DNA from: Owenia fusiformis
Lineage: Eukaryota > Annelida > Polychaeta > Sabellida > Oweniidae
NCBI GenBank assembly: GCA_903813345.2
Contig: CAIIXF020000007.1
Coordinates: 11,785,730 to 11,849,729, forward strand
DNA: 64,000 nt
Reading direction: 5' to 3'
Positions 17,230 to 63,321 of the stretch are shown in pieces (positions within the stretch are counted from its first letter, which is position 1; every line of letters begins with the position of its first letter). The notes beneath the pieces were generated by a model that did not search any database, was not told the DNA's origin, and saw nothing but the letters and a program-made list of their open reading frames with translations. The translations under genes were made by a program, and so were the position numbers.

Positions 17230-17392
17230 TCACGCTTGTCCTGCATAATAATCATATGTGTTGTCAAGAGGTTGCCAACCACTGGTGTTTACCATGGCAA
17301 TGGGTTCTTCAAACCTGGGAATGTCATTCGCTCGATCATTTAATAGTTCATTTCGGGCTTTTTCCATACTTAGTTTTCTTTTCTTCTTTTCT
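17230..17392 (-). CDS. Gene A exon 13: cytoplasmic tail
   Basis: A basic membrane-proximal stretch (REKKKRKL) leads to IPRFEEPIAMVNTSGWQP and a tyrosine-rich end (YDYYAGQA). The core PRFxEPIAMVNT is shared with gene B, so it probably binds a conserved cytoplasmic partner. The stop is TGA at 17232-17230. Confidence 0.8.
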
Positions 17393-20300
17393 CTGAAAGA
17401 AGAAGCAAAATGCAAATCTGGTTAAATGTCAATAGGCGGTGAACGTCAAAAAAAACGTTTGGTCTAAAACAATGAACAGAGGTGGATAATTTGCCCAGTT
17501 AACCTCTGGCTCGGGTAATTAAAGCATACTGTTACTTTGTATGGTACATCCTTGTATGATGAATTGATAATAATATGTTATAGCAACCAGGGATTGTATG
17601 TTAATTAATACTCTTTGCATAAAAAACTCTTACCTCCTTTTGATAATAATGTAGATGGCAATAAGCAATATAACTGCCACTCCAAAGACACCTGATAACA
17701 CAATTGGTAGCAAAGATCCATCTAGCAAAGGCATACAAAACATAAAAACATGTTGTGAAGTTACTTTCCTTTAAAATATATCAATATTACTTATGTGGAA
17801 ATAATAAATTATTCTGCTTCTTATTTTTATTTTATTTTTTTTAATATTCTGCTTCTTATTGATTACATTACTCTAATGCCAACAGCTAGCAATGATAACA
17901 ACCCTCTCTCAAAGAAGTGAAAGTACAAAGAAACAATAAACAATTATAGCGAGTGGATGCAGTTCCTCAATTCTTCCCAAAGTTGGTCAAAATGATATAG
18001 TTCACGATTTTCGCATCTTCAAATGTGTTTCGAGCCTATTTTCAAAGTTTCAGACGAGTACAGACCCAACTTCCAACACGGACTAGAACATTGCCAGAAT
18101 GGTAACGATTGAGTGATACCATCTGACCATGAAACCATGGTTTTTGATAGAATCGAATGGCCATACATAAAACCCCAAACCCACCTGTACTAAACTGTCG
18201 GTTTAGGTTGTCCGATCCAGATCCTGTTTCATCATTTCACATGGTGTCAGTTGAATGGGTTGGTGAAGAAGAAAATAACATTAGACAAATTATTGTTACG
18301 TTTTTATGTATTGAAGTGACATGAGTGACTGGCAATAATAGCGATACAATAATGTAAATGAAATTCTGCTTTCAATGTAATTCAAATAATTATCATTTGT
18401 GATCTGGATTTGGCACCTTTTAGTAATATCCAAACTCACTTATATTTAAACAAAATCATCATTACGTTCATAGTGTCATTGTCACAGGAAACAAATGTGA
18501 CATCCTCTTTTTAAATATTTATAAATCCGATATTTTTATTCATTTTTATCATTAGATGACTGACCTACACACATTCTGCCAGGTAACGACGCATCTTCAC
18601 TTTCATCCTTAAATCCACTCTTGCACTCACAAGCATACGTTCCATTCATATTTGTGCATTTAGCCTCCGAATGACAATCGCTGGTTTCTGTTACACATTC
18701 GTTGTAGTCTAAAAGGAACACATTATTGCATATAAAATGGGCACAACCAGAAAGTGCTGACATTTTGTTGTTTATTGTGACCACCATTTTTCTCTCGAAA
18801 GCACATGCTGTGTCCGGTGCTCAACGTTGATTTCAGGGTTTGACAATAGCTGTGGATATACAAATCAATGGTTGCACTTATTTATGCCTCTGTGTCAAGG
18901 ACTCCCAGTAGAACAGATTCTGTCCCCTGGGATCATTGTTTCCCCTAAATGTGCGATTAATTAATGCACCAATTTATGAACATTGAGACCAAGCGAGAGA
19001 AATTGGATTACACTGAATTACAAATACAAAGAAAATTACCCTCAACAGATACTGGCTGTTTGTCATACCAATTGTTAAGGCCACTTCCTTCATTTGCTGC
19101 TGAGATGTTAAACGCCGATTTAACCTCATCAAATGTCAGCGGTGTACTAGGTGCAGTAGAGCTTGGTTCTAACGTTAAGGTAAAGTCAACAACGACAGAG
19201 CCTCTCGTAAGCTTGTTCACTTCGATATATGGAGTGTAAAAGGTCCAAAAAGCTCCATATAGAAACCCAAGGCGAGCCTGCGAAAACAAGGATCAATGCC
19301 TTAATTATAGTGTAACCAAAATCTATATCACAGTAGTTTTTGATATGGTTTTCATTGGCGACTAATTGTCAAAATGGTTTTATACAAAATGAAAAGTGTG
19401 TCTACAATACTAAATTCACTGTTTAAATAACAAGCATATTGTATGATGCAGAATGTTGATCTATCAAGACAGATATGAAATGGACGTACTGAATAGATAA
19501 ACTGAACAGTGAACGCTATAAAGCCTGGCGATTTGCTGTCATCAAAGTCATCATTGTAAACTACTCCAAGAAGTATGATGCGGATGCTGAATACGTGTGA
19601 ACCTATAAAGAAAGGAAAGGTCGTGAATGTTAACGACAGTGAATTTGTTTCAAATGACCTAAGAGGAAAATACCCACTTTTTGACTGTCTAAAGTCCTTT
19701 GCACTTTTAAATGCAGTTTTTGTACGTGTGACTCGATTTATTGATGATTTTAGGCTGATTTTCTTATATTCCCTAAAGATTAAATAGCAGAGAATGTATG
19801 TTTTGTCAAGATGAGCATTTAACATCTAGATATGTGTTGATTTCTTAAATAATTTGAACTATTTAGATATCTGGATTACATATCATGAATAACTAGACAT
19901 GTAAATTGAACAAGTTCAATTTAAGACTCTAGATTTCAGACTTTTTTTAAGCTGAGTCATCCAAATACTTGTAAGCTGAGTCATTCAGAATAAGCTGAAT
20001 CAGCTAGAATATAGACATTTAGACAACTCTTAAGAATGTTATCTTCGACTCAATTGGCTTAACATGGGGATATCATCATATCGACTTTTCGAGACTTCAA
20101 ACCGCTATAACTATCTAATCAGAAGTTGGCTCGAAATTTGATTTAAAGATTCTGATTCCTGAGAAAATTCTACCCTTAATTCATAACTCATACGTTAAAT
20201 TTGGAGAACTTTTTATTTTGACCTACTTTTCAGACACCATATCTCAAAAGTGGGTCAGAATACTTTATGACGGCAGAAGGCTAACACTATAAGCACACTC

Positions 20301-23300
20301 TTTGCTACCAGTATACAAAATTTCGAAGCAAATCATTAAAGTGTAATGTCAGAATCGCAAAAATAAGGAAAAACTATGAATTTGACCTAGATTTTGACCT
20401 AGGCATTTTGGTGTCCAAATTTTAAAGCGAGATAACCTTCGAGGTCCCCTTCTTTTATAGGCTTCCAGAATGTAAAGCTGTACTCAGTTTATATCTGGTT
20501 TTTTACACTTCAAAAAATATTTTTTCTCATTGACATAACACGGGGCACCAAATTAAGCGATTTTTGAGCTTTAAAAACGCCATAACTTCCGAACCAAAAG
20601 TCGGATTGAAATTTGGTTTGCAGATTCGGATTCCTGGGAAAATTTCTTCCCTTAATTTATAGCTCAGATGTTAAATTTGGAGAACTTTTTATTTTGACCT
20701 ACTTTTCGGACACCATATCTCAAAAGTGGGTCAAAATACTTTCTGACGGCAAAAGGCTTTCACTATAAGATTTTGACCTAGGCATTTTGGTGTCCAAATC
20801 TTAAAGCAAGGTAGCTTTTGAGGTCCCCTTCTTTTACAGGCGTTCATTATGTTAAGCTGTATTCAGTCTATATTAAGTATTTTACACTTCAAAAAAATCT
20901 TTTTTCCCATTGACTTAACATGGGGCACCAAATTTAGCGTTTTTTAGCTTTCAAAATGCCATAACTTCCGAATTGGAAGTCAGATCGAAATTTGGTTTGC
21001 AGATTTGGATTTCTGAGAAAATTCTACATCTTTTTCATAGCTCACATATTCAATTTGGAGGATGTTCAGTCGTGACCTACATTTCGGACGCCATATCTCA
21101 AAATCGGTAAGAGTAATCAAAATTCTGATGTCATATCTTTGATTCGCCTTTTTCAAAGCTACATGATGAAAAAAAGATGAAGGAGTTACGATGAATATTG
21201 ACGAAGATATTATGAAGAATGTTGAAAATGTAAGATTTGACCTAGTTCTTGACCTTTGACCTAGATAAAAATTTGACCTAATTTCCCAGAAAGCCAGAAA
21301 CATTCCTTAGTTAACCATGTAAGTTGGTTTAAGTAAGATGTTATAGTTGGAGAGAAAATGTGTTAGGAGGAAGAAAGAAAGAAAGAAAAAGAGGAATAAC
21401 TAGATTTTGGAAATTGAACGAAGTTCAATTTCAGACTCCAGATCTAGACTTTTTTTAGCCGAGTCATCCAGAATAAGCTGAGTCATCTAGAAAGAGATGG
21501 ATAAATAAAATAGGAAGGTAGGATAGGATAGAATAGGAAAGAACGATAGGATAGAATAAGAAAGAAGGATAGGATAGAATAGAATAGGAAGAAAGGATAG
21601 GATAGGATAGGAAGGATAGGAAGGAAAAGATATGAAGGAAGGATAGATAGGAAGGATAGGGTAGGATGAGATAGGAAGGATGGATGAATTTTTCAATATT
21701 TTCTTCTCTACTCTTGACTTTCTATCAGGATACCATCAGATCGATTTTTCTCGAAATTTCAAAACGCTATCACTTCCGAACCGGAAGTCAGATCGAAATT
21801 TGGTTTGCAGATTCGGATTCCTGACAAAATTCTACCCCTAATTCATAACTCATACGTTAAATTTGGAGATTTTTTATTTTGACCTACTTTTCGGACACGC
21901 CATAACTTCCGAACCGGAAGTTGGATCGAAATTTGGTTTGCAGATTCGGATTCCTGACAGAATTCTACCCTTAATTCATAACTCATATATTCAATTTGGA
22001 GAACTTTTTATTTTGACCTACTTTTCGGACACCATATCTCAAAAGTGGGTCAAAATACTTTCTGACGGCAAAATGCTAACACTATTAGCATATTCTTGGC
22101 TACATGTATACACAATTTCGAAGAATATAATTAAAGTGTAGTGTCAGAATCGAAAAAATAAGGAAAACCTATGAATTTGACCTAGATTTTGACCTAGGCA
22201 TTTCGGTGTCCAAATTGTGAAGCTAGATGGCTTTTGAGGTTCCCTTCTTTTAAAGGCTTTGATTATATGAAGCTGAACTCAGTCTATATTCCGTATTTTT
22301 CACTTCAAAAAAATATTTTTTCCCATTGACTTAACATGGGCACCAAATTTAGCGATTTTTGAGTTTTCAAAACGCCATAACTTCCAAACCGGAAGTCAGA
22401 TCTAAATTTCGTTTTCAGATTCGGAATCCTGAGAAAATTTCCTATAAGACTAATATCCTGCACATTTGATTCGGAGAACTTTTTTTTGGACCTCGTTTTC
22501 GGACACTGATATCTCGAAATCAGTTTGAGATATCAAAAAACTAAATCGACCCTAGGTTTCCTACTTTTTTATAAGGAACACAATGAAAAAAACCCGGATC
22601 GAAAATATTGAAGGACGACCGAGAAAATCGAAAAAAGTGACAAAGTACTGGATTTGACCTAGTTCTTGACCTTTGACCTAGATAAAAATTTGACCCCATT
22701 TCCCACCAACTAGATACTATACCTATATTGACCATATAATAGTCTTGAAAAGATGTCTTATAGTTGTTGAGAAAACTCGATCAGTATAATAAGAATAAGA
22801 AGAATAAGAAAAAGAAAAGAGGCAAAAACAATAGACTCCAGATTTCATCTGGAGTCTAACTACTACATAATAACTATGAAGTAATTTAAACTCTCCAATG
22901 GGCCTTTAAAGAATAAGTAAAAAGAGGCTTTAGTTTACTCACGCGTTTTACAACCACTGCCTCCATAACCAACTGGACATGGTGCATCTGTTGTTCCTTT
23001 TTCAGTTGTCGATGGATAAGAAGTTGAAGTTGTATCAGCATCTGCTTTTCCAGTGCTAGCTGTACCAACTGCTGTTCTAGTTGCATCAGCAGTGGTTGTA
23101 TCATCAACAGTTGCCGTTACATCAGCAGTGGTTGTACCAACAACAGTTGCAGTTACATCAGCAGTGGTTGAATCATTAACAGTTGCAGTTACATCAGCAG
23201 TGGTTGAATCATCAACAGTTGCCGTTACATCAGCATTGGTTGTATCATCAACAGTTGCCGTCACACCAGCAGTGGCTGTATCATCAACAGTTGCCGTTGC

Positions 23301-26300
23301 ATCAGCAGTGGTTGTATCAACAACAGTTGCCGTCACACCAGCAGTGGTTGTATCAACAACAGTTGCCGTTACATCAGCAGTGGTTGTATCATCAACAGTT
23401 GCCGTTACATCAGCATTGGTTGTATCATCAACAGTTGCCGTTGCATCAGGAGTGGTTGTATCATCAACAGTTGCCGTCACACCAGCAGTGGTTGTATCAA
23501 CAACAGTTGCCGTTACATCAGCAGTGGTTGTATCATCAACAGTTGCCGTTACATCAGCATTGGTTGTATCATCAACAGTTGCCGTTGCATCAGGAGTGGT
23601 TTTATCATCAACAGTTGCCGTTGCATCAGCAGTGGTTGTATCAACAACATTTGCCGTTGCATCAGCAGTGGTTGTATCATCAACAGTTGCCGTTACATCA
23701 GCATTGGTTGCAACAGCAACAGTTGCCGTTGCATCAGCAGTGGTTGTACCAACAACAGTTGCCGTTGCATCAGCAGTGGTTGTATCATCAACAGTTGCCG
23801 TTACATCAGCATTGGTTGTATCATCAACAGTTGCCGTCGCATCAGGAGTGGTTGTATCATCAACAGTTGCCGTTGCATCAGCAGTGGTTGTATCAACAAC
23901 AGTTGCCGTTGCATCAGCAGTGGTTGTATCATCAACAGTTGCCGTTACATCAGCATTGGTTGTATCATCAACAGTTGCCGTTGCATCAGCAGTGGTTGTA
24001 CCAACAACAGTTGCCGTTGCATCAGCAGTGGTTGTATCATCAACAATTGCCGTTACATCAGCATTGGTTGTATCATCAACAGTTGCCGTTGCATCAGCAG
24101 TGGTTGTATCATCAACAGTTGTCGTTACATCAGCAGTGGTTGTATCAACAACAGTTGCCGTTGCATCAGGAGTGGTTGTATCATCAACAGTTGCCGTTGC
24201 ATCAGCAGTGGTTGTATCAACAACATTTGCCGTTGCATCAGCAGTGGTTGTATCATCAACAGTTGCCGTTACATCAGCATTGGTTGCAACAGCAACAGTT
24301 GCCGTTGCATCAGCAGTGGTTGTACCAACAACAGTTGCCGTTGCATCAGCAGTGGTTGTATCATCAACAGTTGCCGTTACATCAGCATTGGTTGTATCAT
24401 CAACAGTTGCCGTTGCATCAGGAGTGGTTGTATCATCAACAGTTGCCGTTGCATCAGCAGTGGTTGTATCAACAACAGTTGCCGTTGCATCAGCAGTGGT
24501 TGTATCATCAACAGTTGCCGTTACATCAGCATTGGTTGTATCATCAACAGTTGCCGTTGCATCAGCAGTGGTTGTACCAACAACAGTTGCCGTTGCATCA
24601 GCAGTGGTTGTATCATCAACAATTGCCGTTACATCAGCATTGGTTGTATCATCAACAGTTGCCGTTGCATCAGCAGTGGTTGTATCATCAACAGTTGTCG
24701 TTACATCAGCAGTGGTTGTATCAACAACAGTTGCCGTTACATCAGCAGTGGTTGTATCATCAACAATTGCCGTTACATCAGCATTGGTTGTATCATCAAC
24801 AGTTGCCGTTGCATCAGCAGTGGTTGTATCATCAACAGTTGTCGTTACATCAGCAGTGGTTGTATCAACAACAGTTGCCGTTACATCAGCAGTGGTTGTA
24901 TCATCAACAGTTGCCGTTACATCAGCATTGGTTGTATCATCAACAGTTGCTGTCACACCAGCAGTGGTTGTATCAACAACAGTTGCCGTTACATCAGCAG
25001 TGGTTGTATCATCAACAGTTGCCGTTACATCAGCAGTGGTTGTATCATCAACAGTTGCCGTTACATCAGCATTGGTTGTATCATCAACAGTTGCTGTCAC
25101 ACCAGCAGTGGTTGTATCAACAACAGTTGCAGTTACACCAGCAGTGGTTGTATCAACAGTTGCTGTTACATCAGCAGTTGTGCTATCATCAACAATCGCT
25201 GTTGTGTCAGCAGTAATATCACTAACAGTCGCCGTTACACTAGCAATGGTGCTACCATCAGCAGTTGCAGTTACATCATCAGTTGATATACCATCAACAG
25301 TCGCTGTTGTGTCAGCAGTAATATCATCAACTGTCGACGTTATATCAGCAGTGGTGCTACCATCAGCAGTTGCAGTTAAACCATCGGTTGATATATCATA
25401 AACAGTTGCATCATCAGTTGTTATACTATCAACAGTCCCTATTGTGTCAGTAGTAATATCACTAACAGTCGCCGTTACACCATCAGTTGATAAATTGTCA
25501 ACAGTCAATGTTGTGTCAGCAGTCGTTGCACCAATATTAGTGACATCAGCATCAGCTGTCGTTGCACCAATAGTAGTTACATCAGCATCAGCTGTCGTTG
25601 CACCAATAGTAGTTACATCAGCCTCAGCTGTCGTTGCACCAATAATAGTTATATCAGCCTCAGCAGTCGTTACGCCAAGAGTAGTTACATCAGCATCAGC
25701 TGTCGTTGCACCAATAGAAGTTATATCAGCCTGAGGTGTCGTTGCACCAATAGTAGTTACATCAGCCTCTGCTGTCGTTGCACCAATAATAGTTATATCA
25801 GCCTCAGCAGTCGTTACGCCAAGAGTAGTTACATCAGCATCAGCTGTCGTTGCACCAATAGAAGTTATATCAGCCTGAGGTGTCGTTGCACCAATAGTAG
25901 TTACATCAGCCTCTGCTGTCGTTGCACCAATAGTAGTTACATCAGCCTCTGCTGTCGTTGCACCAAGAGTAGTTACATCAGTCTCAGCTGTTGTTGTACC
26001 AATAGTAGTTACATCAGCCTCAGCTGTCGTTGCATCAATAGTAGTTACATCAGCATCAGCTGTCGTTGCACCAATAGTAGTTACATCAGCATCAGCTGTC
26101 GTTGCACCAATAGTAGTTACATCAGCATCAGCTGTCGTTGCACCAATAGTAGTTACATCAGCCTCAGCTGTCGTTGCACCAAGAGTAGTTACTTCAGCCT
26201 CAGCTGTCGTTGCACCAAGAGTAGTAGTCGTAGCAACAGTAGCTGTAGTAGTAGTAACAGTTGTTGGTGTTGTGCAGGCTTTATCATTATCAGGTATGTC

Positions 26301-33792: not shown

Positions 33793-33985
33793 CTAGTATA
33801 TAGCATATACATCCTGTGGTTGTCTGGCTCCAGTGTTCATAGCATATACATCATAATATGGTTGTCTGGCCCCAGTGTTCACCATAGCAATGGGTTCATC
33901 AAACCGAGGAAAGTCATTTGCATCATTAGTATCTTCATTTTTGTCTGCATCTCTGTCCAAATTCTTTTTTCGTTTTCTCATTTGT
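33793..33985 (-). CDS. Gene B exon 10: cytoplasmic tail
   Basis: Basic and acidic proximal part, then FPRFDEPIAMVNTGARQP, YYDVYAM, and a second NTGARQPQDVYAIY to the stop. The end unit is duplicated, doubling the tyrosines relative to gene A. Confidence 0.8.
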
Positions 33986-50124: not shown

Positions 50125-50784
50125 TAAACAAGCGTTGTGGATATCCGTCACTTTACGGATATTCGTGGATACCCGCACTGCTTAATTAGAGGTAGCACAT
50201 TTTTGTTTAATGTTTCCCATTATGTATAGAATCACACAGAAATCTTTCAACTTTCAAAATGCAAATATAATTTGTATTGAAAGATAGATCACCAACAAAG
50301 ATCTGATTCTGCTTTTAATTTCCGCACCTTGCGCACATGATATCCACACCGCTTGTTTTCGTATAGCACAGTCTGAATAAAGTGATATAGATCGAGAGAA
50401 GTTATGCATTTGCCATTGCACTCATTCATTCACTCATTCATATACGGGTCAGCAAGCTTTGGTAAATATTGAATTCCACGGGTCTCAGCACATCCACATT
50501 GTATATATATAACTGTTCGAAACTTATTGTCTAATATTTACAATTGTAACACAAATGAACACTAAAAACATTCTTGGCATAGGAATTGAAGAGTTGCACT
50601 TTACAAACGAACAACTACTTGTATTTTTAAAAGATATGGCATATATAGTTATGCAACAATATTTGTGTCGTCAACGGTACTTGACAGGCTTACAAACTTA
50701 ATGTAACTTTATCAGCGGGAAAGGGTGGCCCTCAAGGGAGGAACATGGGCCGACCAGGGGGTAATATGCAATATGTATTTATTC
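50125..50784. other. Spacer, no gene seen
   Basis: No exon, domain or clear repeat was identified. Confidence 0.4.
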
Positions 50785-51400
50785 TGAGTGTACCGACCTT
50801 GGGGAAGGTACAATAATAAGCAAAGCTTTATGTTTGTTTTTTCTTGATTGGTAGTTGCAACGTCAACGCGGCAGCCTGACGTATTTGCAACAAACGATTA
50901 TATCTCCTAAGCAGCTATAAATACATTTTAGTATTACTCGCATATTTGTATTTATATTTATGTACACTTACTATACACAATAATTTAGAATTGCACCATA
51001 GGGCAACACCACCTTTCTTCAATTTACAAAAATTGTATATTTCTTTTACTAACTTACAAGATATTGAAAGCATCTCATACTTTCATACAGTACCGACTTT
51101 GGGGAAGGTATGATGATACGCTATGTCTTCCTTTTTATCTTTATAGAAAATGCAGATCCATAATGTCATTATTTATTAATCTCAAGAGTGTTAGGTAACA
51201 GGTCTATCTAGGCCTACGGCGTGCGTCTACGCGGTAGCTAGGCGTCGTCGTCAGTACAAAAACAACAACAAAACAATGAATGTTTGTAAAATATAGTCAT
51301 TTTTTATAATTGCGTTACAATTAGGTGCTAGGCCAATTTTGGTCGGCGGCGTGCGTCTACGCGGTAGCTAGGCGTCGTCGTCAGTCAAAAACAGCAATAT
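50785..51400. repeat. Diverged direct repeats with GC-rich core
   Basis: GTACCGACCTTGGGGAAGGTA near 50789 recurs near 51091, and GCGTGCGTCTACGCGGTAGC with AGGCGTCGTCGTCAGT recurs near 51219 and 51348. The core motifs are much GC-richer than the surroundings and contain short palindromes. Class unknown. Confidence 0.6.
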
Positions 51401-51761
51401 TGTTTGTTTGTAAATAGTGATTATTTTTAATTTAACATTTACATAATTTGTATACATGTATCTCCTTTATATAAAGGGCAATAAATATATACATACACAT
51501 ACACACAATACATATTGTCTTTATTCTGGATATTTAATTAAAATGTGGTATATTATTTGATGGATGTTCACAGCGCCAACAATATTTTACATGGCAAAAC
51601 TATCTTGATTACAGTTTTTTGTCAGGTAAATTTCTGCTACTCAATCCCAGGACACTAGTTATGTAAATGATTCTTATAAACGAGATTTGTTCATAATATT
51701 TATAATATAATTTGTATCATCATTAGGTACAAATCTGAAATGAGGATCGAGAGGCCTGACT

Positions 51762-51945
51762 TCATTTTCGACCCCTTCTCAATTTTGGATTCACAGATCC
51801 ACCCCTGATCGTGTACGACTCAGTAGAAGGTGAACGCCTTGGCTTGACACTTGAGTGTTGCGGGACACTTATTAACGGATACTTCGATCTATTCTGTTTG
51901 TCGATATTTTTCGTTCCAAGTAATCGTCCTTTACTCGACAGAAAT
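51762..51945 (-). CDS. Gene C last exon: divergent basic tail (tentative)
   Basis: After AG|A in the right phase: FLSSKGRLLGTKNIDKQNRS, KYPLISVPQHSS and a basic end to TGA. The length (about 60 residues) suits the family, but the acceptor has a poor pyrimidine tract and the sequence shares nothing with A or B, so the true tail could lie elsewhere. Confidence 0.4.
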
Positions 51946-54900
51946 CTACATTGCTGATGTACTAGACTAGTCAATGAATTCTACAATACAACATGTAAAG
52001 ATTAGGAGTTGAATAAGTGTCCATACTTTGCATTAAAATTCCCCGAACAGTTTAAAGACACAACGGCATTAACACGTCCAAGCGTTGCACTTCATTACGC
52101 ATCACCGAGTCTAGATCTGTCAAGACGTCATCTTCCCATGCTAATTGTAGAAAGAGCATATAAATAGCTTTGAATTTACACTACCATTGTGTTAGGGCTG
52201 CCAAGTATCAGGATTATTTGTGATTATGGGGCTTCTAAAAGATGGCATATCTTGTTCCGCACTAAGTTCTTCCCTTGTTCCATCATTGCTAGTTCTGAAA
52301 CATGCAGCGGATTATTTAGTTAGAGGCCCAATATTTGAAATCAAATGTGTACTTGACATCATGCAATCTCTACCAATGGAACTGCGTCCCGAACTGCGTT
52401 GTCCCTTTTCAATTGTCATGATACAAAAGATTTATGCGTCGTGAATCTTCGATATCCCCTATTTCTAATCAAATACCTCAATTATAAAAACTATTGTAAG
52501 GAAAACATTGCCATACTTTTTGAAAACATTGCTTCCAAACACTTTACACTTTATATTCTTTTACTTCCATTTACATACCTCTTTTTATGTATGATAGATG
52601 CTCCTATTAACGCCACGGCAGTCAAAGCCAATACGCCAGCAAACGCAACAGGAAGCAACGAGCCATCTGTAAAATATGATGAATAAAATCAAAGGACGGA
52701 ACATCTTACTTAAAAGTTATGTAGCGTTTTTGTAGAACTACAGATACAAATGAACCTGGTTAGTAGTGTTTACTACCTCAGTACTTACTAATATTGCCTG
52801 GATTACTTTAAAAAATTCCAAGCTTGGGCCTCTTAAACCCAAAATCGGGCCCACATTTTGAAAATTTAAGGCCTAAAAAGCCCATGTTTTAATTTTTTCA
52901 AAATTCAGTTTAAATGTGACTTCTAGTTCGGTGAAATTCCCCAGAGACCCCATGTTATAAAATCACAAAAAGTGAAATATCTTTTCTTGCATTGGACAGA
53001 TGATATTTTCTTTCACTGGACACATTTTATAGTTTGCATAACTGTTAGATACATATAGTCTGGCAGAAATATAGGGTATTTTGACATTCAATCGTTTTCT
53101 TTGGATTACAATGTTTTTTTAACTTATCAACATGAATATAGGATTGGGACCTCAAAACCACCGGATGCCGGTGCGGCACCCTTGGGCAACTCTCTACAGA
53201 GCATTTCTTATACCCCCCTGATAAAATATACAGGGGGTACTATAAGACACCCTCATATCTCAGATACTGATAAATATATTAACTTGAGATTTTCAGGAAT
53301 TAGTTTTAGTATGATGCTTGACATGTATGACAAAAATCAAGAAAAAATCTTAATCCGTTGCTATAGCAACAGTAACAGAACACTATTTGTTACCGTAGAG
53401 ATGCATTATTTTGCTGATTTTCAACATTTCTTCGTATAGTTGATTCTTAAACTAGTATATAGTATTACACTGGTATATAGGACACTGCATATTTTATATT
53501 TAGTATATACATGTATATCAAATGAAATCTAATGAATTCATACAGTAGTGAGGTTGGCATATAGCCTAGACCTTGGCATTTAGAACATGCATCATAATAA
53601 AATCTAATGTAATTATACAATAGAGAGGTTGGCATAGTCTAGATTTTGGCATAATGTCAAAATTTTATAAGCATTGGCTTCCTCATCTGAGCAATCAGAC
53701 TACTGGGGGGCCCTGTATAGCTTCTGGGGGGGGGGGGCACTGGGACCATCGTATAGCTTTTAAAGGCACTGTGAATATTTGATTTAACATTGAATTCAAT
53801 TGGATATTTCTCTAACAGTGAAATTTAATGGCCATGAAACATTTCAGATTGACAACATCGTGAATTTTTTGTCAGTAAAAATTTGGGCTTACTTCTGGGG
53901 GCCACTGGGGGCCCTCGTATGGTTTCTGGGGGCCCCTTTATAGCTTCTAAGGCCACCATATAGCTTTTTTGGGCCACTAGGGGCCCCTGTATAGCTTCTT
54001 GGGGCCACTAGGGGCCCCTGTATAGCTTCTTGGGGACACTTGGGGTCACCATATAGATTTTTGGAGCCACCGTATAGCTTCTGGGGGCCCCTATATAGTT
54101 TCTTGGGGCCATTGGGGGCCGCCGTACAGCTTCTGGGGGCTACCATATAGTTTCTGGGGGCCACTGGATGCCATCCTATAGCTTCTGGCGGCTACTGGGG
54201 GCCACCGTATAGCTTCTGGGTGCCATCATATAGCTTCTTGGGCCTACCATATAGCTTCTTGGGGCCACTAGGGGCCCCTGTATAGCTTTTGGGGGCCACT
54301 GTAAAGCTTCTTGGAGCCACAGGGGACCACCATATAGCTTCTGGGGGCTACTAGGGGCTGCTGGATATGCTTCTGGGGGCCACCATATAGCTTTAAGGGG
54401 GCTTAGGGGCCACTGTATATATTCTGGGGGCTACTGGGGGCCCCTGTATAGCTTCTGGAAGTCACCATATACCTTCTAGGGGCCATTAGGAGCCCCTGTA
54501 TAGCTTCCGGGGGCTACCATATAGCTTCTGGGGGCTCCTGTTTAGCTTCTTGGAGACACTGGGGGGCCACCATATAGTTTTTGGGAGCCACCGTATAGCT
54601 TCTGGGGGCCCCTGTATAGTTTCTTGGGGCCATTGGGGGCCACCGTACAGCTTCTGGGGGCTACAATATAGCTTCTGGGGGCCACTGGATGCCATCCTAT
54701 AGCTTCTGGCGGCTACTTGGGGCCACCGTATAGCTTCTGGGTGCCATCATATAGCTTCTGGGGCCTACCATATAGCTTCTTGGAGCCACTGGGGATCACC
54801 ATATAGCTTCTGGGGGCTACTAGGGGCTGCTGGATATGCTTCTGGGGGCCACCATATAGCTTTCCGGGGCCACCGTATAGCTTTAAGAGGGCACTAGGGG

Positions 54901-57900
54901 CCACTGTATAGATTCTGGAGGCTACTGGGGGCCCCTGTATAGCTTCTGGAAGTCACTATATAGCTTCTAGGGGCCATTTGGAGCCCCTGTATAGCTTCTG
55001 GGGGCTACCATATAGCTTCTGGGGGCTACTAGGGGTCCCTGTATAGTTTCTGGGGGCCACCTTATAGCATCTTGGGGCTACTGGGGGCCCCTGTATAGCT
55101 TCTGGGGCCACTGGGGTCCATGGTATAGCTTCTGGGGGCCACTGGGGGCATTTTTTTTATTTGAACCTTGAAAATTAATCTATTTTGCTAGATTTGGTGG
55201 CTGTCGAGGTGGGGTAAAATTAAATTATAATTTTCTTTTCAAATTCATGTGACTATTTATCTCTAAAGCAGCACTTTTTTACCTAGGGAGCATAACCTTT
55301 TCAAGAAGTGTTATTTTGGACCACCTTTTTAAAGAGAGTGAAATGTAAAAACTTGATTATTAATTGATGTTACCATAGCAACTGAAATGCTAGATATATT
55401 GCATAAACCATATGATGAATTATTTCATCTTAACTTCTAATCATGTATATAACAGATGCTTTAAGAATCAAGAATATGAAGAAAATTATGAAAATCAGCA
55501 AAATAATGCATTTCTACGGTAACAAATAGTGTCTATTTCTGTTGCTATAGCAACGGACTAAGATTTTTTCTTGATTTTTGTCACATGTGTCAAGCATCAT
55601 ACTAAAACCAATTCCTGAAAATTTCAAGTTAATATATTTATTAGTGTCTGAGATATGAAGGTGTCTTATAGTACCCCCTGTATATTTTATCAGGGGGGTA
55701 TAAGAAATGCTCTGTAGAGAGTTGCCCAAGGGTGCCGCTCCGGCATCCAATGGTTTTGAGGTCCCAACCCTATATTCATGCTGATAAGTTAAAAAAACAT
55801 TGTAATCCGAAAAAAACGATTAGCTTTGAAGTTTCTGCCAGACTAATAAGGGTGATATGAAAATTGAACCACTAAAAACTAATGAAAATTTAAGTTAAAG
55901 GGAACTTTCTACAATACCCGCCATGCTACCTGACCCGAATGAGCCACCCGTTCGTGAAACTGCCTACTCGCATCTGAGTTATTAACATAATAGAACTCAC
56001 CAGTGAGGAACTGAACTTTATTAAGGGCAGCTTCATCTGAAACACTATTGTCAATTGGAGCTATTGTCGATGATGGGGATACAGCTGTTGACAATGAGGA
56101 TACAGACGATGGTGATGAAGATGTCGATTTTGGGGATATAGATGTTGATGATGGGGATACACCTGATGATGATGAGAATACAGATGATGATAATGGCGAT
56201 GTAGATGTTGACAATGGGGATACAGATGATGGTGATTGGGATGAAGATGTTAGTGATGGGGATAATAATGTTGATGATTGGGATAAAGCTGTTGACGATG
56301 GGGATACATCTGATGATGCTGAGGATACAGATGATGATAATGGTGACACAGATGTTGATAATTGGGAAATAGATGTTGATAATAGAGTTAAAGATAATGA
56401 TAAAGGATCAGATGCTGAAGGTGTTACAGTCATTGACATAGATTCAGCTTCAGATGATGGAGTTAAAGAAAACAATTGAGAATCAGATGTTGTAGGTGTT
56501 AGAGTCATTGATAGAGAGTCAGATACTGATGACGGGATTACTGAGAGTGATTGAGATTCCGATGATGACATTGTTGCAGTCATTGATAGAGAGTCGGATA
56601 CTGATGATGGGGTTAAAGATTGTGATTGTGGTTCGGATAATAAAGGTGTTACAGTCATTGATAGAGAGTCAAATACTGATGATGGGGTTCCAGACAATAA
56701 CCGGGAATTAGATGCGGAAGCTGTTACACTCATTGATTTAGAGTCAGATACTGATGACAGGGTTACAGATAGTGATTGAGATTCAGATGCTGAAGTTGTT
56801 ACACTCATTGATAGTTGGTCAGATATTGATGATGGGGTTACAGATAGTGATTGAGAATCGGATGCTGAAGGTGTTACACTCATTGATAGAAAGTCAGATA
56901 CAGATGGTGGAGTTACAGATAGTGATTGAGAATCAGATGCTGAGGGTGTTACAGTCATTGATAGAGAGTCAGATACTGATGATGGGGTTATAGATTGTGA
57001 TTGAGATTCAGATGCTGAAGGTGTTACACTCATTGATAGAGAGTCAGATACAGATGATGGAGTTACAGATAGTGATTGAAAATCAGATAATGAAGGTGTT
57101 GCAGTCATTGATAGAGAGTCAGATACTGATGATGGGGTTACAGATAATGATTGAGAATCAGATAATGAAGGTGTTTCAGTCGTTGATAGAGAGTCAGATA
57201 CTGATGATGGGGTTACAGATAATGATTGAGAATCAGATGATGAAAGTGTTACAGTCATTGATACAGGGTCAGATACTGATGATGGGGTTACAGATAGTGA
57301 TTGAGAATCAGATGGTGAAGGTGTTACAACCATTGATAGGGATTCAGATACTGATGATGGGGTTACAGATAATGATTGAGAATCAGATGATGAGGGTGTT
57401 ACAGTCATTGAAAGTGAGGCAGATGCTGATGATGGGGTTACAGGTTGGGATTGAGATTCAGATGCTGAAGATGTTACAGTCATTGATAGAGAGTCAGATA
57501 CTGATGATGGGGTTATAGATTGTGATTGAGATTCAGATGCTGAAGGTGTTACACTCATTGATAGAGAGTCAGATACAGATGATGGAGTGACAGACAATAA
57601 TTGAGATTCAGATCCTGGAGTGGTTTCAGTCATTGACAGAGAGCCAAATACTGACGATGGGGTTACAGATAGTGATTGAGAATCAGATGTTGAAGGTGTT
57701 ACAGTCATTGACAGAGAGCCAAATACTGACGATGGGGTTACAGATAGTGATTGAGAATCAGATGCTGAACGTGTTACGGTCATTGATAGAGAGTCAGATG
57801 CTGATGATGGGGTTGCAGATAGTGATTGAGAATCAGATGCTGAGGGTGTTACAGTCATTGATAGAGAGTCAGATACTGATGATGGGGTTACAGATATTGA

Positions 57901-60900
57901 TTGAGAATCAGATGCTGAGGGTGTTACAGTCATTGATAGAGAGTCAGATACTGATGGTGGGGTTACAGATAGTGATTGAGAATCAGATGCTGAGGGTGCT
58001 ACAGTCATTGATAGAGAGTCAGATACTGATGATGGGGTTACAGATAGTGATTGAGATTCAGATGCTGAAGGTGTTACAATCATTGATAGAGAGTCAGATA
58101 CTGATGATGGGGTTATAGATTGTGATTGAGATTCAGATGCTGAAGGTGTTTCACTCATTGATAGAGAGTCAGATACAGACGATGGAGTTACAGATAGTGA
58201 TTGAGAATCAGATAATGAAGGTGTTGCAGTCATTGATAGAGAGTCAGATACTGATGATGGGGTTACAGATAGTGATTGAGATTCAGATGCTGAGGGTGTT
58301 ACAGTCATTGATAGAGAGTCAGATACTGATGATGGGGTTACAGATAGCGATTGAGATTCAGATGCTGAAGGTGTTACACTCATTGATAGAGAGTCAGATA
58401 CAGATGATGGAGTTGCAGATAGTGATTGAGAATCAGATGATGAGGGTGTTACAGTCATTGATAGAGAGTCAGATACTGATGATGGGGTTACAGATAGTGA
58501 TTGAGAATCAGATAATGAAGGTGTTGCAGTCATTGATAGAGAGTCAGATACTGTTGATGGGGTTACAGATAATGATTGAGATTCAGATGCTGAAGGTGTT
58601 ACACTCATTGATAGAGAGTCAGATACAGATGATGGAGTTACAGATAGTGATTGAGAATCAGATGCTGAACGTGTTACACTCATTGACAGAGAGTCAGATA
58701 CAGATGATGGAGATACAAATAGTGATTGAGAATCAGATGCTGAGGGTGTTACAGTCATTGATAGAGAGTCAGATACTGATGATGGGGTTACAGATAGTGA
58801 TTGAGATTCAGATGCTGAAGGTGTTACACTCATTGATAGAGAGTCAGATACAGATGATGGAGTTACAGATAGTGATTGAGAATCAGATGATGAGGGTGTT
58901 ACAGTCATTGATAGAGAGTCAGATACTGATGATGGGGTTACAGATAATGATTGAGAATCAGATAATGAAGGTGTTTCAGTCGTTGATAGAGAGTCAGATA
59001 CTGATGATGGGGTTACAGATAATGATTGAGAATCAGATGATGAAAGTGTTACAGTCATTGATACAGGGTCAGATACTGATGATGGGGTTACAGATAGTGA
59101 TTGAGAATCAGATGGTGAAGGTGTTACAACCATTGATAGGGATTCAGATACTGATGATGGGGTTACAGATAATGATTGAGAATCAGATGCTGAAGGTGTT
59201 GCAGTCATTGATAGAGAGTTAGATACTGATGATGGAGTTATATATAGTGATTGAGAATCAGATGCTGAAGGTGTTGCAGTCATTGATAGAGAGTCAGATA
59301 CTGATGATGGGGTTACAGATAATGATTGAGAGTCAGATGAAAGTGTTACAGTCATTGATAGAGAGTCAGATACTGATGATGGGGTTACAGATAGTGATTG
59401 AGATTCAGATGCTGAAGGTGCTACAGTCATTGATTCAATTGCTGTTGGTTGTACCGATATTGAGTTGGTTAATCTTGGTAAAATAGATGTTTGCTCTATC
59501 ATTGACGTTTCTGGGGGTATGTGTGCTGTTGATGACATTTCAATCGATGGAATAGATTGCATAGTGGATGACACTTCAGGCTTTGGGCAACTACCGCCAT
59601 TAGCTGATACACCTGAAATCAATTAAATTGATCTGTTATTGTTCTCCACATCTTGATTTACAAAGTTTCAATACTATACTAGTCATTCAAGTCCAATGAA
59701 GCTTTTATTATCACTTTGGAAGTCAGGGATGAGTTATCCACAAGTCAGGGTTAAATAAGCTAACATTTAAAATAAGCATGAGTTTATTATCCATAGTTTT
59801 TATATCTGTTACTGCGAATGGTAGGAGAACATTTTGGTGCTTAGCAATATATAAGTAATATATAACATTAGTAAGTTGTAAAATATTCTTACTTGGATCA
59901 TAATCGTTTTCAACACATTCAATATTAACGAATGGGGAAAGAGAATTCTCTTCATCAGTGGCTGGTCTGTAACCATCTTTGCATTGACAAGTCCCATCTT
60001 TACATTCTTGTTCTTTCTCTTGACATACCTAGTTGTATTAAACATATTTGGAGTTAATTTATAAAGGTAATTTTTAAGAAAATACTTCTTACTGGTTTTA
60101 TTCTTAATAATTTAGCTGTCCCTCGATATTATTAACCTTGATCATGAATTTTGGAAGAGTGGATCAGAAATTTTTACTTTTTGGTTATCACCAGTTTCTT
60201 TACAATCTTCTCCCAACAGTGACCAGGTGTAGTCTTTAAAGTTTGAGATGTCTTCTTTGCAACGTGTGTCGTCCACTTGTATGTAGCCCTGTTGACACTC
60301 GCATATACTGTTCACACATACAGTCCTACCCCCGGGACACATAATGGTGTCATTGCATGATCCCCCAATAGTAGAAACTGAAAAGAATGATATATAAATA
60401 AATTTGTTTAGTTTAAAAATTCCCACTTGTGAGCTGCCAAAACACAAAATAAGATATTAAACGTTATGAACTCTAAACTAATGATCTCATTATTTGTGTA
60501 TTATTTGCACAAAATGTAATGGCTCATAGAGAGGCAACATTCCAGTATTTAAAGATGAACGTAACTCCGTGTAAAGATTCTGGGTTATTACCTCTCTTGC
60601 CTAAGACGCCAGTAGGAAAACTTCCGAATGTTTACCTTGATAAATTTCTTAAGGGACAAACTGAATATATGTAATTGTTCTAGTCTTGCAGCCTGGCTCT
60701 TAATCTCCACCGACCACCTTGTGGAGATGAGGTGTGGAGGAGCACAAGCAAGACTTTTATCAGTTCATTCCCTAATTTGATAGAGATAACACCCATTTTC
60801 TATACCTTACCTTGTAAACATTGATCATTATTAACGTTTGATATTGTTCCCACATTACAGATGCAAATATTTCCGTCGCATCCCCTGGCCTTGCAGGCTG

Positions 60901-63321
60901 CATTTAGGATACAGTTTTCCTCCGAATCACATTCCTCATAAATTTTAACTAAAAAAACAATGAACGATGTTACTTCAAATGGTTGCCAATGGGAGAAGCC
61001 AAACATGTTTCAGGCAAGGCAACAGCCTAACCAAGATTTTACTGAAAATACTTATTTATGCAGACATTTTTCAACAAAAACTGTGAAAATGAAGTGTAAA
61101 GAAAATTGTATTCCTTCTTTACCCTTTGTATCGCTCATTTACATTTATCTTGACTACGCCCCTGTTAGCTGTAATATCTGGTCCATTCTACGGAGTTCAG
61201 TTCCACCCTATGCAGACAGAGCCTGTGGGAAATATTGGGTGCTGCGCAAATGAGCGGAGGGTGCGGAGCTAACGGTCATTTTTGAATTTAAAATTGGGAT
61301 ATTTCTGAAACTAATAATATACCAAGATATGTGTATTTGACACCAAATATCAATAAAATTGTGAAAATAGTAGTGCAATTCATTTTATAGCGACGCAGTA
61401 TGCCTTAAACATTTCCCAGACCTATATATTTTGAGACTATCCTTTTAATTCTGCGTCCCCAGCATTCATAAAAAATGGTGTTCAAGATACACTACCCATG
61501 CAAATTATTTTTGCATCTTGGAAGCCAGGCAGTATCTGTGTGATTTTATAAAAATTCGGAAATGTTCTTCAGATATGAGCCCCCTCTAAATATTGGGTGC
61601 GGAGGTACGTTTATGGAGCTCCTCCGCACCCAATATTTAGAGGGGGCTCATATCTGAAAAACATTTCCGAATTTTTATAAAATCACACAGATACTGCCTG
61701 GCTTCCAAGATGCAAAAATAATTTGTATAGATAGTGTACCTTGAACACCATTTTTTTATGAATGCTGGGGACTCAGTATTAAAAGGATAATTTCAAAATA
61801 TATAGGTCTGGGAAAGGTTTAAGGCACACTGCGTCGCTATAGAATGAATTGCGCTACTATTTTCACAATTGTATTGATATTTGGTGTCAAATACACATAT
61901 CTTGGTATATTTGAAGTCCCAAAATGTCTTAGTTTCAGAAATATCCCAAATTTAAATTCAAAAATGACCGTTAGCTCCGCACCCTCCGCTCATTTGCTCC
62001 GCACCCAATATTTCCCACAGGCTCTGTTTGCATAGGGTGAGTTCATTACAATGCGTAATCAAATCTTGAAAATACATTACCCCCAAAAGACGAAACTATT
62101 CGTACGTACCTATAGGTGGGCAGGAAACCTGGGTATTGTTCACTAAAACAAGATTTAGACATTGTAATTAGTTAAACATTTAGTTTGAAATAATACAAAT
62201 AGTACTAAGTACACTATAATTACTTTTTTTTCTTTTTTCATTCATTTTATACTATCCTAAGAATGTAATATGATTATTGATTACAGAGAACAGTCCACAC
62301 AGCAACAAATTACGAGAAATTATAAGATATAAAGCTAATTCAGAATGCAAAATAAAAAAGTATAGGGTCAAACTAAAATGTAAGACCCTGTTATGAAAAA
62401 ATTAAAACCAAATGAACAAAAAATCCTAAAATTATAAAGTACTAAACTGTACCTATGCCACGCGAAATTAAAATATAATATTTATAAAGATTGAAACAAG
62501 TAATAAAAAGAAACAAGAAATAAGTAAATAACTTAAAATAAATGACACACAAATAAACAAATAAATTAACTTTTTCTATTTCTACTTGATAAAACTAACC
62601 AATAGGTTTACTGAGATATTCTAAAATTGAAGGATTAAAATTGATTTATATTTGAACCATCTAACAGGCAGATCGGATCGGATTGGCTGTTAGATGTTGT
62701 CCTACTCTATCCTTAATTCTTCATATGGAAGAAAAATAGAAATGGATTCGGAATATTCTTTGTCTGGTAATTTTAGATCATATGAACATAATCCAGCCTG
62801 TAATCACTATTTGTAATAAAAAACAAATACTTTTGGACTTGATATGTATGAATTTTTTTATGTATGAATATTAGGTCTTGCCAACATTGAATAAGCCTTC
62901 TCAATGCAACTTTCATATGATGAAGACAGCATAATGACCAAACAAAGAATGAATCTTAGAAATACACTTTTACTTCATAAGTCATGAGACGGATTTACAA
63001 TTATATGATAAATTATCCCACAGATGCAAGGGACTCAGGGACTGGTGGCTCCAGCGTAATACTTCCCAGTTTCGAAAGTATAACATATCTTAGCGATTAA
63101 AACAGTTGACTATTACACTTTAATCTTGCTTGTTGAAGAGCAGATATGTTTTTAAATGATATCAATTTTCAACTACAAAATTTCGGAATTGATTGTGAGG
63201 TGATTTTTGGAGCCACCATACCCCCATATTTATCATAATAATTAATTAAAATAGAAAAATGTTGAAGCTAAACTGTCAATAATCTATGAATTGCTTCATT
63301 TACCTACAACAACATTAGAAC
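51762..63321 (-). CDS. Gene C: transmembrane mucin, 5' end outside window (8 exons seen)
   Basis: Exons in coding order: 63321-63304 (micro-exon), 62142-62110, 60948-60811, 60377-60178, 60028-59893, 59612-56001, 52666-52579, 51945-51762. Phases close over 1,468 codons plus stop. Linker, cysteine-rich modules and transmembrane exon match genes A and B. The mucin exon is entirely different, a Ser-rich 25-aa repeat. No SEA or EGF exon is seen before the membrane. The signal peptide and the exon 2 and 3 equivalents are not in view; they may lie beyond base 64000 or be lost. The tail exon has no PRFxEPIAMVNT and is the least certain part. Confidence 0.75.
51946..52578. other. Probable last intron of gene C
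   Basis: No conserved coding segment was seen, and in particular no copy of the tail motif found in A and B. The plus-strand frame at 52220-52444 has no recognisable domain. Confidence 0.4.
52579..52666 (-). CDS. Gene C transmembrane exon
   Basis: DGSLLPVAFAGVLALTAVAL, then IGASIIHKKR. DGSLLP matches gene A; 88 nt, phase 1 to 2. Confidence 0.85.
53090..55821. mobile_element. 2.7-kb element with ~360-bp inverted ends and minisatellite core
   Basis: Left arm (about 53090-53445) and right arm (about 55455-55821) are inverted copies starting AATCGTTTT...GGATTACAATGTTTT and including TACCCCCCTGATAAAATATA. Between them is a long G/C-rich minisatellite. It inserted into an older Harbinger-like element in the intron before the gene C transmembrane exon. 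Superfamily and target duplication are unresolved. Confidence 0.75.
53700..55160. repeat. ~30-bp minisatellite core (TATAGCTTCTGGGGGCC)
   Basis: About 1.4 kb of degenerate units built on TATAGCTTCTGGGGGCCACT and GGGGCCCCTG. A longer block recurs about 540 bp apart (the GGCGGCTACTTGGGGCC version near 54185 and 54707). Open frames over it repeat Gly/Pro-rich nonsense and are not genes. Confidence 0.85.
56001..59612 (-). CDS. Gene C mucin-repeat exon (3.6 kb)
   Basis: One exon, phase 1-1, starting VSANGGSCPKPEVSS and ending NKVQFLT. It has about 39 units of 25 aa, SVTPSSVSDSLSM plus TVTPSASDSQSL, then a shorter, less regular Ser/Pro/Thr tail. Serine makes up nearly half the residues, unlike A (Thr) and B (mixed). 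It is a heavily O-glycosylatable stalk in principle. Confidence 0.85.
56480..59440 (-). repeat. 75-bp coding minisatellite with 1,800-bp higher-order repeat
   Basis: About 39 units of 75 bp. Bases 57121-57388 are identical, as far as I can read, to 58921-59188, exactly 1,800 bp (24 units) apart, showing a recent large block duplication. Confidence 0.85.
59893..60028 (-). CDS. Gene C EB/EGF-like module, second part
   Basis: VCQEKEQECKDGTCQC, KDGYRPATDEENSLSPFVN, VENDYDP. Homologous to exon 7 of A and B; acceptor ACAACTAG, donor GTAAGA. Confidence 0.8.
60178..60377 (-). CDS. Gene C EB/EGF-like module
   Basis: STIGGSCNDTIMCPGGRTVC, SICECQQGYIQVDDTRC, YTWSLLGEDCKETG; 200 nt, phase 1 to 0, same as gene A. 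Confidence 0.85.
60811..60948 (-). CDS. Gene C cysteine-rich module
   Basis: KIYEECDSEENCILNAAC, KARGCDGNICIC; 138 nt, phase 1-1, as in A and B. Confidence 0.85.
61204..62039. mobile_element. 836-bp near-perfect palindrome (foldback element)
   Basis: Two arms of about 410 bp are almost exact reverse complements around a short centre near 61615. Ends read CACCCTATGCAGACAGAGCC and its inverse, and AGTTC flanks both sides (61199-61203, 62040-62044), a five-base target duplication. No protein is encoded. It lies in a gene C intron. Superfamily unknown. Confidence 0.8.
62110..62142 (-). CDS. Gene C linker exon (33 nt)
   Basis: NNTQVSCPPI, phase 1-1; three codons shorter than in A and B, having lost part of the proline run. 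Confidence 0.7.
62143..63303. other. Gene C intron, no further exon seen
   Basis: AT-rich. I looked for the 330-nt double-module exon that precedes the linker in A and B and did not find it here. Confidence 0.45.
63304..63321 (-). CDS. Gene C possible 18-nt micro-exon
   Basis: Bounded by TTATTGCAG and GTAAATG, phase 1-1, coding for SNVVV between split codons. The frame fits the next exon, but a segment this short can arise by chance. Confidence 0.35.
   Translation of the reverse strand, partial: VLMLL

What the first reader, a model, noticed from the sequence alone, without database searches (positions are those of the whole stretch)
17230..63321. Tandem family of membrane mucins that keep heads and membrane anchors but swap mucin repeats
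Three head-to-tail minus-strand genes share cysteine-rich exons of the same length, phase and sequence, and the same transmembrane exon, yet their giant repeat exons are unrelated: 12-aa Thr/Asp in A, 10-aa plus 8-aa in B, 25-aa Ser-rich in C. Selection seems to hold the head and anchor while the glycosylated stalk is free to be replaced. I do not know a described family with this exact layout. A role at a mucosal surface or in recognising microbes is inference.
Basis: partly seen in the sequence, partly recalled or inferred. Interest (0 to 1): 0.8.

Follow-up and report, generated by a model that had tools for sequence, protein, structure and literature searches.

The report
Three neighbouring membrane mucins, changing stalks
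An animal genome carries three side-by-side genes for sugar-coated cell-surface proteins whose cysteine-rich tips and membrane anchors stay alike while the long sugar-bearing stalk differs, much like a known human mucin cluster but with a different kind of tip.

Summary
Three minus-strand paralogues (A 32086-17230, B 46001-33793, C at least 62142-52192) can be modelled with 27 of 27 GT-AG introns and matching phases. A and B are complete in the window (1721 and 1040 aa): signal peptide, EB-module head (Pfam E=2.8e-18), one giant Ser/Thr exon, TM exon, tail exon. Gene C's front lies outside the window or is missing.

Tandem membrane mucins with conserved ends and diverging repeats are already described (MUC3 cluster, PMC9578598, passages).

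'Unrelated' stalks is only partly right. Repeat consensuses show no cross-gene similarity, but the B and C mucin exons start alike (0 of 1000 shuffles) and C keeps one B-like unit (suggestive). So at least B and C look like one exon whose repeats were replaced from within; a 588-of-590-nt duplication inside A's array shows recent turnover.

New variant of a known kind. No relative was found, but only viral and prokaryote collections could be searched.

The parts
32020..32086 (-). Gene A exon with ATG and signal peptide (MERFQMRISVVCIVFVVLTQYV...)
   Evidence: hydrophobic start, AG directly before ATG, GTGAGT donor, similar exon in B
31440..31583 (-). Gene A exon 1a, EB-type module (144 nt, phase 1-1)
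29987..30316 (-). Gene A exon 1b, EB-type modules (330 nt, phase 1-1)
   Evidence: Pfam EB 3.8e-07 on the containing ORF
28561..28602 (-). Gene A linker exon (NNTNITCPTPPPI)
27680..27817 (-). Gene A exon 2a (EB-type)
26909..27108 (-). Gene A exon 2b (200 nt, EB-type)
26649..26790 (-). Gene A exon 2c
22943..26299 (-). Gene A mucin exon, 3357 nt, 12-aa Thr-rich repeats, S+T 38%, P 1%
19490..19602 (-). Gene A probable SEA domain, first exon
   Evidence: Pfam SEA 16.7 bits, E=0.008 on the joined exons (below the curated cutoff of 26.4); the pieces tried gave no SEA match
19040..19277 (-). Gene A probable SEA domain, second exon with RGSVVVDF
18565..18708 (-). Gene A calcium-binding EGF exon
   Evidence: Pfam EGF_CA E=1.1e-09; phase 1-1
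17634..17721 (-). Gene A transmembrane exon
17230..17392 (-). Gene A cytoplasmic tail exon with stop (NDIPRFEEPIAMVNT)
45932..46001 (-). Gene B exon with ATG and signal peptide
45039..45182 (-). Gene B exon 1a (144 nt)
44474..44803 (-). Gene B exon 1b (330 nt)
   Evidence: Pfam EB 1.2e-08 on the containing ORF
42135..42176 (-). Gene B linker exon
37819..37956 (-). Gene B exon 2a
37173..37366 (-). Gene B exon 2b (194 nt)
36939..37083 (-). Gene B exon 2c
34731..36503 (-). Gene B mucin exon, 1773 nt, 10-aa then 8-aa repeats, S+T 45%, P 11%
34243..34336 (-). Gene B transmembrane exon, separated from the mucin exon by a 394-nt intron, no SEA or EGF found there
33793..33985 (-). Gene B tail exon with stop
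62110..62142 (-). Gene C linker exon (first exon of C recognised in the window)
60811..60948 (-). Gene C exon 2a
60178..60377 (-). Gene C exon 2b (200 nt)
59893..60028 (-). Gene C exon 2c
56001..59612 (-). Gene C mucin exon, 3612 nt, 25-aa Ser-rich repeats, S+T 50%, P 8%
52579..52666 (-). Gene C transmembrane exon
52192..52294 (-). Gene C tail exon with stop (DMPSFRSPIITNN)

Best explanation
A tandem family of type I membrane mucins. After signal-peptide removal, a disulphide-rich EB-module head (two homologous blocks, shown for A and B) sits at the far tip. Behind it stands a long Ser/Thr stalk of about 590 to 1200 residues, presumably O-glycosylated, then a single membrane helix and a short tail with a shared D-[IFM]-P-x-F-x-x-P-I motif. 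Gene A adds a probable self-cleaving SEA domain and one calcium-binding EGF just outside the membrane; in B and C the stalk appears to join the membrane helix directly. The stalk exon changes by expansion and loss of repeat units between fixed exon edges. 20 of 27 modelled introns are phase 1, and the SEA+EGF block as a whole is phase 1-1, so it can come or go without a frameshift. Most likely role: an extended cell-surface glycocalyx whose conserved tips bind something, with stalk length and glycan density free to vary. Shown from sequence: anatomy, head duplication, head constraint, repeat turnover. Inferred: expression, glycosylation, SEA cleavage, binding role.
For: Full models, A 1721 aa and B 1040 aa, no internal stops, 27 of 27 modelled introns GT-AG. 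EB modules E=2.8e-18 for the A head and 1e-14 for the visible C head. Set 1 versus set 2 inside one gene: score 217 (A) and 220 (B), best of 500 shuffles 85 and 84. dN/dS A-B 0.27 and 0.21 for the two head blocks. Only the sense frame of each mucin exon is stop-free among all six. With the observed number of differences between neighbouring units placed at random, 7.8 stops (B; fewest 2) and 15.1 (C; fewest 6) are expected in 200 simulations; 0 are seen. Recent duplication in the arrays: 588 of 590 nt at lag 576 in A, 465 of 471 nt at lag 1800 in C. B and C exon starts, first 60 nt: local score 30 against mean 12.3, 0 of 1000 shuffles; over the first 180 nt, 3 of 1000. EGF_CA E=1.1e-09. SEA 16.7 bits in the expected place. 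Each gene has its own stop codon and an AATAAA or ATTAAA within about 700 nt downstream (such hexamers are common by chance in AT-rich DNA).
Against: No transcript or protein data. SEA is below Pfam's curated cutoff (16.7 against 26.4 bits), its two exons were joined by me, and the three pieces or partial joins tried gave no SEA match; dystroglycan DAG1 (E=0.017) overlaps it. Constraint on Ser/Thr themselves is not shown: gains and losses between neighbouring units match random expectation in A (64 against 58.6) and B (38 against 40.8), and are only slightly low in C (65 against 80.9, lowest of 200 simulations 61). The stop test is uninformative for A (1.5 expected). A's stalk has 1% Pro, unusual for a PTS domain, and 19% Asp+Glu. 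For A, homology of the mucin exon with those of B and C is not shown at DNA level (first 60 nt: 451 and 32 of 1000 shuffles as good; first 180 nt: 928 and 309); only position and phase support it.
Confidence: 0.72

Rival explanations
1. One complex locus rather than three genes: symmetrical phase-1 exons allow heads, stalks and anchors of A, B and C to be mixed by alternative or read-through splicing.
For: 20 of 27 modelled introns are phase 1, so much mixing would keep the frame.
Against: A and B each have their own signal-peptide exon, and all three have their own TM exon, tail exon with stop, and downstream candidate poly-A hexamers.
Confidence: 0.08
2. The stalks differ because whole mucin exons were replaced by exon shuffling from unrelated mucin genes.
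For: Repeat consensuses of different genes show no similarity above shuffles in 8 of 8 cross-gene comparisons. A's exon start is not similar to B's and only weakly to C's (first 60 nt: 451 and 32 of 1000 shuffles as good). A alone has the probable SEA and the EGF, so A could be a fusion with a SEA-EGF mucin.
Against: B and C share the 5' edge of the exon (0 of 1000 shuffles), and C keeps a stretch 21/23 nt identical to an early B unit (1 of 2000). The same C segment also scored above shuffles against A (4 of 2000), so that second test is not clean.
Confidence: 0.2
3. The repeat arrays are intronic minisatellites and the proteins are short EB-head membrane proteins.
For: The window also holds minisatellites that look non-coding (38045-42001, 53959-55149).
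Against: Three of three arrays are open only in the frame, and between the splice sites, that fit their neighbours, while the two intronic minisatellites have stops in every minus-strand frame. Expected stops in B and C are 7.8 and 15.1, seen 0; for A only 1.5 are expected.
Confidence: 0.05
4. Function is mainly signalling or adhesion (a ligand or receptor with a mucin spacer) rather than a glycocalyx barrier.
For: Conserved cysteine-rich tip under purifying selection; tail motif shared by three of three genes and Tyr-rich tail ends in A and B.
Against: I recognised no known signalling motif by eye, tails are short and diverge quickly (29-54% identity), and A's tail, the only one scanned, has no Pfam match.
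Confidence: 0.3

Closest known systems
MUC3A/MUC3B/MUC12/MUC17 cluster, human 7q22 (PMC9578598, passages read)
   Same: Tandem membrane mucin genes; a long PTS-encoding exon; N- and C-terminal parts better conserved than the repeats, and repeats that vary between MUC genes; SEA (probable in gene A); TM and tail.
   Different: Here a conserved cysteine-rich part is N-terminal, before the stalk, and made of EB modules. SEA and EGF were found only in A. No evidence of descent from the vertebrate cluster. (EGF in that cluster is recalled and in general form from PMC9080433, not from PMC9578598.)
MUC13 and its neighbour HEG (PMC1552070, passages read)
   Same: Neighbouring membrane mucins, one with SEA (MUC13), one without (HEG), both with EGF and PTS.
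   Different: No EB head mentioned in the passages read; HEG keeps EGF whereas none was found in B and C here; chicken Muc13 splits the PTS domain over exons, here each is a single exon.
Mucin1-like with SEA, sea anemone Actinia tenebrosa (PMC9080433, passages read)
   Same: Signal peptide, PTS, SEA, TM in a non-vertebrate.
   Different: No EB head, EGF or tandem cluster for it in the passages read.
EB-module proteins (Pfam PF01683)
   Same: Head modules match the EB profile above its cutoff.
   Different: EB proteins with a giant mucin stalk and TM did not appear in the paper-search listings; none of those listed papers was opened.

Membership tests
Membrane mucin (type I, PTS domain) | Signal peptide | tested here: met
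   A and B: hydrophobic N-terminal exons. Hydropathy scan only, no dedicated predictor. C not visible.
Membrane mucin (type I, PTS domain) | Long Ser/Thr/Pro tandem-repeat region | tested here: met
   S+T 38, 45, 50%; P 1, 11, 8%. A is Pro-poor.
Membrane mucin (type I, PTS domain) | Transmembrane helix and cytoplasmic tail after the PTS region | tested here: met
   Hydrophobic TM exon and tail exon in 3 of 3 genes; no dedicated predictor
Membrane mucin (type I, PTS domain) | Dense O-glycosylation | not testable with these tools
   needs biochemistry
SEA-type membrane mucin (MUC1/3/12/13/16/17 kind) | SEA domain between PTS and TM | tested here: inconclusive
   A: 16.7 bits, E=0.008, below the Pfam cutoff of 26.4, but expected position and GSVVV motif; partial pieces gave no match. 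B and C: no tblastn hit of A's SEA within the B or C mucin-TM intron at E<=10.
SEA-type membrane mucin (MUC1/3/12/13/16/17 kind) | SEA autocleavage | not testable with these tools
   GSVVV motif present in A. That this is the cleavage site is recalled, not from a call.
MUC3/12/13/17 layout | EGF next to SEA | tested here: met
   A only: EGF_CA E=1.1e-09, next to the probable SEA; not found in B or C. The family's own layout is partly recalled.
MUC3/12/17 gene cluster (orthology) | ACHE / TRIM56-SERPINE1 neighbours | tested here: inconclusive
   Only LAMTOR5 was identified nearby. 10 of the 174 ORFs listed were given to Pfam in that call, and the window is only 64 kb.
EB-module family (PF01683) | Profile match above curated cutoff | tested here: met
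   66.2 bits (A head) and 54.7 (C head) against 24.3. Overlapping matches above their cutoffs in the A head: TSP1_TSH7A-B_C 31.4 against 27, cEGF 28.1 against 26.6.

The most novel reading that the evidence does not exclude
An animal lineage outside the described mucin clusters has its own tandem membrane-mucin family. An internally duplicated EB-module tip is kept constant while, inside one exon with fixed phase-1 edges, new repeat seeds take over the stalk, and a SEA+EGF block is present or absent in neighbouring copies. This would be a natural three-way series for testing what stalk sequence and SEA cleavage contribute when the tip is held constant.
Probability: 0.4. Interest if true: 0.55.

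Novelty: new variant of a known kind. Interest (0 to 1): 0.42.

Why it matters
Mucin stalks are known to diverge fast, but how one repeat gives way to another is seldom visible (my judgement, not from a search). Here two neighbouring paralogues share the exon edge and perhaps one stray repeat unit, while a third carries a different stalk plus a probable SEA and an EGF. That makes the order of events (repeat seed takeover, SEA gain or loss) testable with orthologues.

Tried and rejected
Relatives elsewhere: viral contigs with A set 2b+2c (4 pattern matches, none confirmed) and genome contigs with A set 1b (16 pattern matches, none confirmed). These collections hold viral and prokaryote sequence, so absence says little. 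No eukaryote genome was searchable and no whole genome is held for the window. Rfam at gathering threshold: 0 matches. PDB by sequence: the SEA stretch gave only two weak hits, neither a SEA protein (E=0.78 and 0.93); heads gave reelin E=0.028, NELL2 E=0.043 and a VSG E=0.5, not used. AlphaFold of exon 1b from two sequences: mean pLDDT 51.8, too poor, so no fold search was made.

Pfam matches set aside: B's mucin ORF matches PMG (E=3.8e-15), Keratin_B2_2 (4.7e-12) and Keratin_B2 (1.8e-09), all above their cutoffs, and Gp5_trimer_C (0.00019) and DUF2345 (0.37) below theirs; C's matches FAM186A_PQQAQ (4.2e-06) below its cutoff. I take these as matches of repetitive composition, not as membership; this was not tested further. 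A's mucin ORF matched nothing at E<=1.

Single-gene or splicing-cassette reading and non-coding-minisatellite reading: see rivals. Gene conversion between A and B was considered because exon 2c has low synonymous difference (5.0/27.0 sites against 37.5/67.9 in 2a+2b, Fisher p=0.0012; 1b+2c against 1a+2a+2b p=0.0053). Both comparisons were chosen after seeing the data, so I do not claim it. Tree of five head blocks: set 1 and set 2 separate with full support; the order of A, B, C is unresolved, so gain in A versus loss in B and C of SEA+EGF cannot be decided. A claim that C's 25-aa unit is derived from B's 10-aa unit was tested and not supported (score 16, mean of shuffles 16.0). C's own two half-units resemble each other (30 against 15.9, 5 of 2000). 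The consensuses come from units picked by motif (20 of C, 27 and 13 of B, 12 and 11 of A), not from all units.

Paper searches (10 of 10); several returned more papers than were listed (15 of 103). Papers opened (passages only): PMC9578598, PMC9080433, PMC1552070; other papers seen only as listings. That EB-module proteins are often annotated as 'prion-like domain-bearing protein 25' is recalled; the search on it listed one paper, on bumblebees, not opened.
Full report
WHAT IS THERE. Three genes lie head to tail on the minus strand. I rebuilt them exon by exon from six-frame self-comparison, reading of splice borders and assembly. Gene A runs 32086 to 17230 and encodes 1721 aa. Gene B runs 46001 to 33793 and encodes 1040 aa. 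Gene C is visible from 62142 to 52192 (1436 residues in the window part). All 27 modelled introns (12 in A, 9 in B, 6 in C) are GT-AG and all junction phases fit; 20 of the 27 are phase 1. I chose the sites for fit, so the fit alone is not proof, but the exon borders fall at the same place in paralogous exons and blastn similarity ends near them.

THE HEAD. A and B each have a signal-peptide exon, exons 1a (144 nt) and 1b (330 nt), a 42-nt linker exon, and exons 2a, 2b, 2c. Set 2 (2a+2b+2c) is a divergent copy of set 1 (1a+1b): score 217 and 220 against shuffle maxima of 85 and 84 in 500. The part before the stalk is 354 aa with 40 cysteines in both A and B, one of the 40 in the signal peptide. 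Pfam names the modules EB (A head 2.8e-18, 5 stretches; visible C head 1e-14, 3 stretches), with weaker overlapping matches to TSP1_TSH7A-B_C and cEGF. A-B dN/dS is 0.27 for set 1 and 0.21 for set 2. For set 2 against C, synonymous sites are saturated, so no ratio is given. In gene C only the linker and set 2 are in the window. Set 1 was not found up to 64000, so it lies beyond the window or is absent.

THE STALK. One exon in each gene: 3357, 1773 and 3612 nt. Repeats are 12 aa (A), 10 then 8 aa (B) and 25 aa (C). Ser+Thr is 38, 45 and 50%, Pro 1, 11 and 8%. Of the six frames only the sense frame is free of stops. Random substitution at the observed level between neighbouring units would give about 7.8 stops in B and 15.1 in C, with minima of 2 and 6 in 200 runs; none is present. 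For A only 1.5 are expected, so this test is not informative there. Constraint on Ser/Thr themselves could not be shown in A or B and is slight in C. Differences between units fall mostly at second codon positions in A (138 of 248 at lag 36), so A's units do not show the usual third-position excess of protein-level constraint.

HOW THE STALKS RELATE. Consensus repeats of different genes are no more alike than shuffles in 8 of 8 cross-gene comparisons; the two within-gene comparisons gave 45 of 2000 for A's two types and 951 of 2000 for B's two types (consensuses from motif-picked units). Yet the first 60 nt of the B and C mucin exons match (score 30, mean 12.3, 0 of 1000 codon shuffles; first 180 nt, 3 of 1000). 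Just before its own array C has a stretch matching an early B unit at 21 of 23 nt (1 of 2000). The same stretch also beat shuffles against A (4 of 2000), so I treat this second point as suggestive. A's exon start is not similar to B's (451 of 1000) and only weakly to C's (32 of 1000; over 180 nt 928 and 309). Within arrays, 588 of 590 nt agree at lag 576 in A and 465 of 471 at lag 1800 in C, against a synonymous divergence of 0.45 to 0.67 between the head blocks of A and B. The arrays are thus being rewritten much faster than the heads. For B and C the best reading is one exon whose repeat was replaced from within. For A, replacement from another gene is not excluded.

Between stalk and membrane, gene A has two exons that together give a Pfam SEA match of 16.7 bits (E=0.008; cutoff 26.4) with the sequence RGSVVVDF; the single ORF and two shorter pieces tried earlier gave none. 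An EGF exon follows (EGF_CA 1.1e-09). Splice phases run 1-0, 0-1, 1-1, so the block as a whole is 1-1. In B the mucin and TM exons are 394 nt apart. In C they are 3334 nt apart, with a minisatellite and an inverted repeat pair between. No trace of A's SEA or EGF was found in either intron (tblastn to E=10). Tail exons of all three share D-[IFM]-P-x-F-x-x-P-I; C's tail exon is at 52294-52192.

HOW IT PROBABLY WORKS. Type I membrane mucins: a disulphide-rich tip on a long glycosylated rod anchored by one helix, with a probable SEA and an EGF at the base in A. Anatomy and selection on the tip are shown; glycosylation, cleavage, tissue and partners are inferred. I put 0.72 on this description and about 0.3 on signalling or adhesion rather than barrier being the main role; the two overlap.

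KNOWN KINDS. The human MUC3 cluster has tandem membrane mucins whose N- and C-terminal parts are better conserved than their PTS exons (PMC9578598, passages). MUC13 and HEG are neighbours with and without SEA (PMC1552070, passages). [quoted passage not shown] The EB head at the far tip, and SEA+EGF in only one of three neighbours, are the differences. Searches for EB module or EB domain with mucin and related terms listed no such family; the papers listed there were not opened and only part's 103 hits was shown. The species is unknown to me; that an invertebrate is likely from the EB modules rests on recall.

VERDICT. Real as sequence, well preserved and informative, but a new variant of a known kind rather than a new kind.

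Noticed in passing
14636-14941 (+): Intact LAMTOR5 (Ragulator subunit) reading frame, full-length Pfam match (E=1.6e-22) in a single uninterrupted stretch; possibly an intronless copy.
   Followed up: partly
38045-42001: Four-kilobase 39-nt minisatellite with strong strand skew in the intron between linker and exon 2a of gene B.
   Followed up: partly
53090-53451 and 55460-55821: Inverted pair of about 360 nt, 93% alike, flanking a GC-richer minisatellite in the mucin-TM intron of gene C.
   Followed up: no
20050-22780: Several direct copies of a dispersed repeat in the intron between mucin exon and SEA exon of gene A.
   Followed up: no
36939-37083 and 26649-26790: Exon 2c of A and B has unusually few synonymous differences (5.0/27.0 sites) next to neighbours 2a and 2b (37.5/67.9); perhaps gene conversion, noted after the fact.
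   Followed up: partly
33793-33985: Gene B tail ends in a short internal duplication (NTGARQPYYDVYA / NTGARQPQDVYAIY) rich in tyrosine.
   Followed up: no
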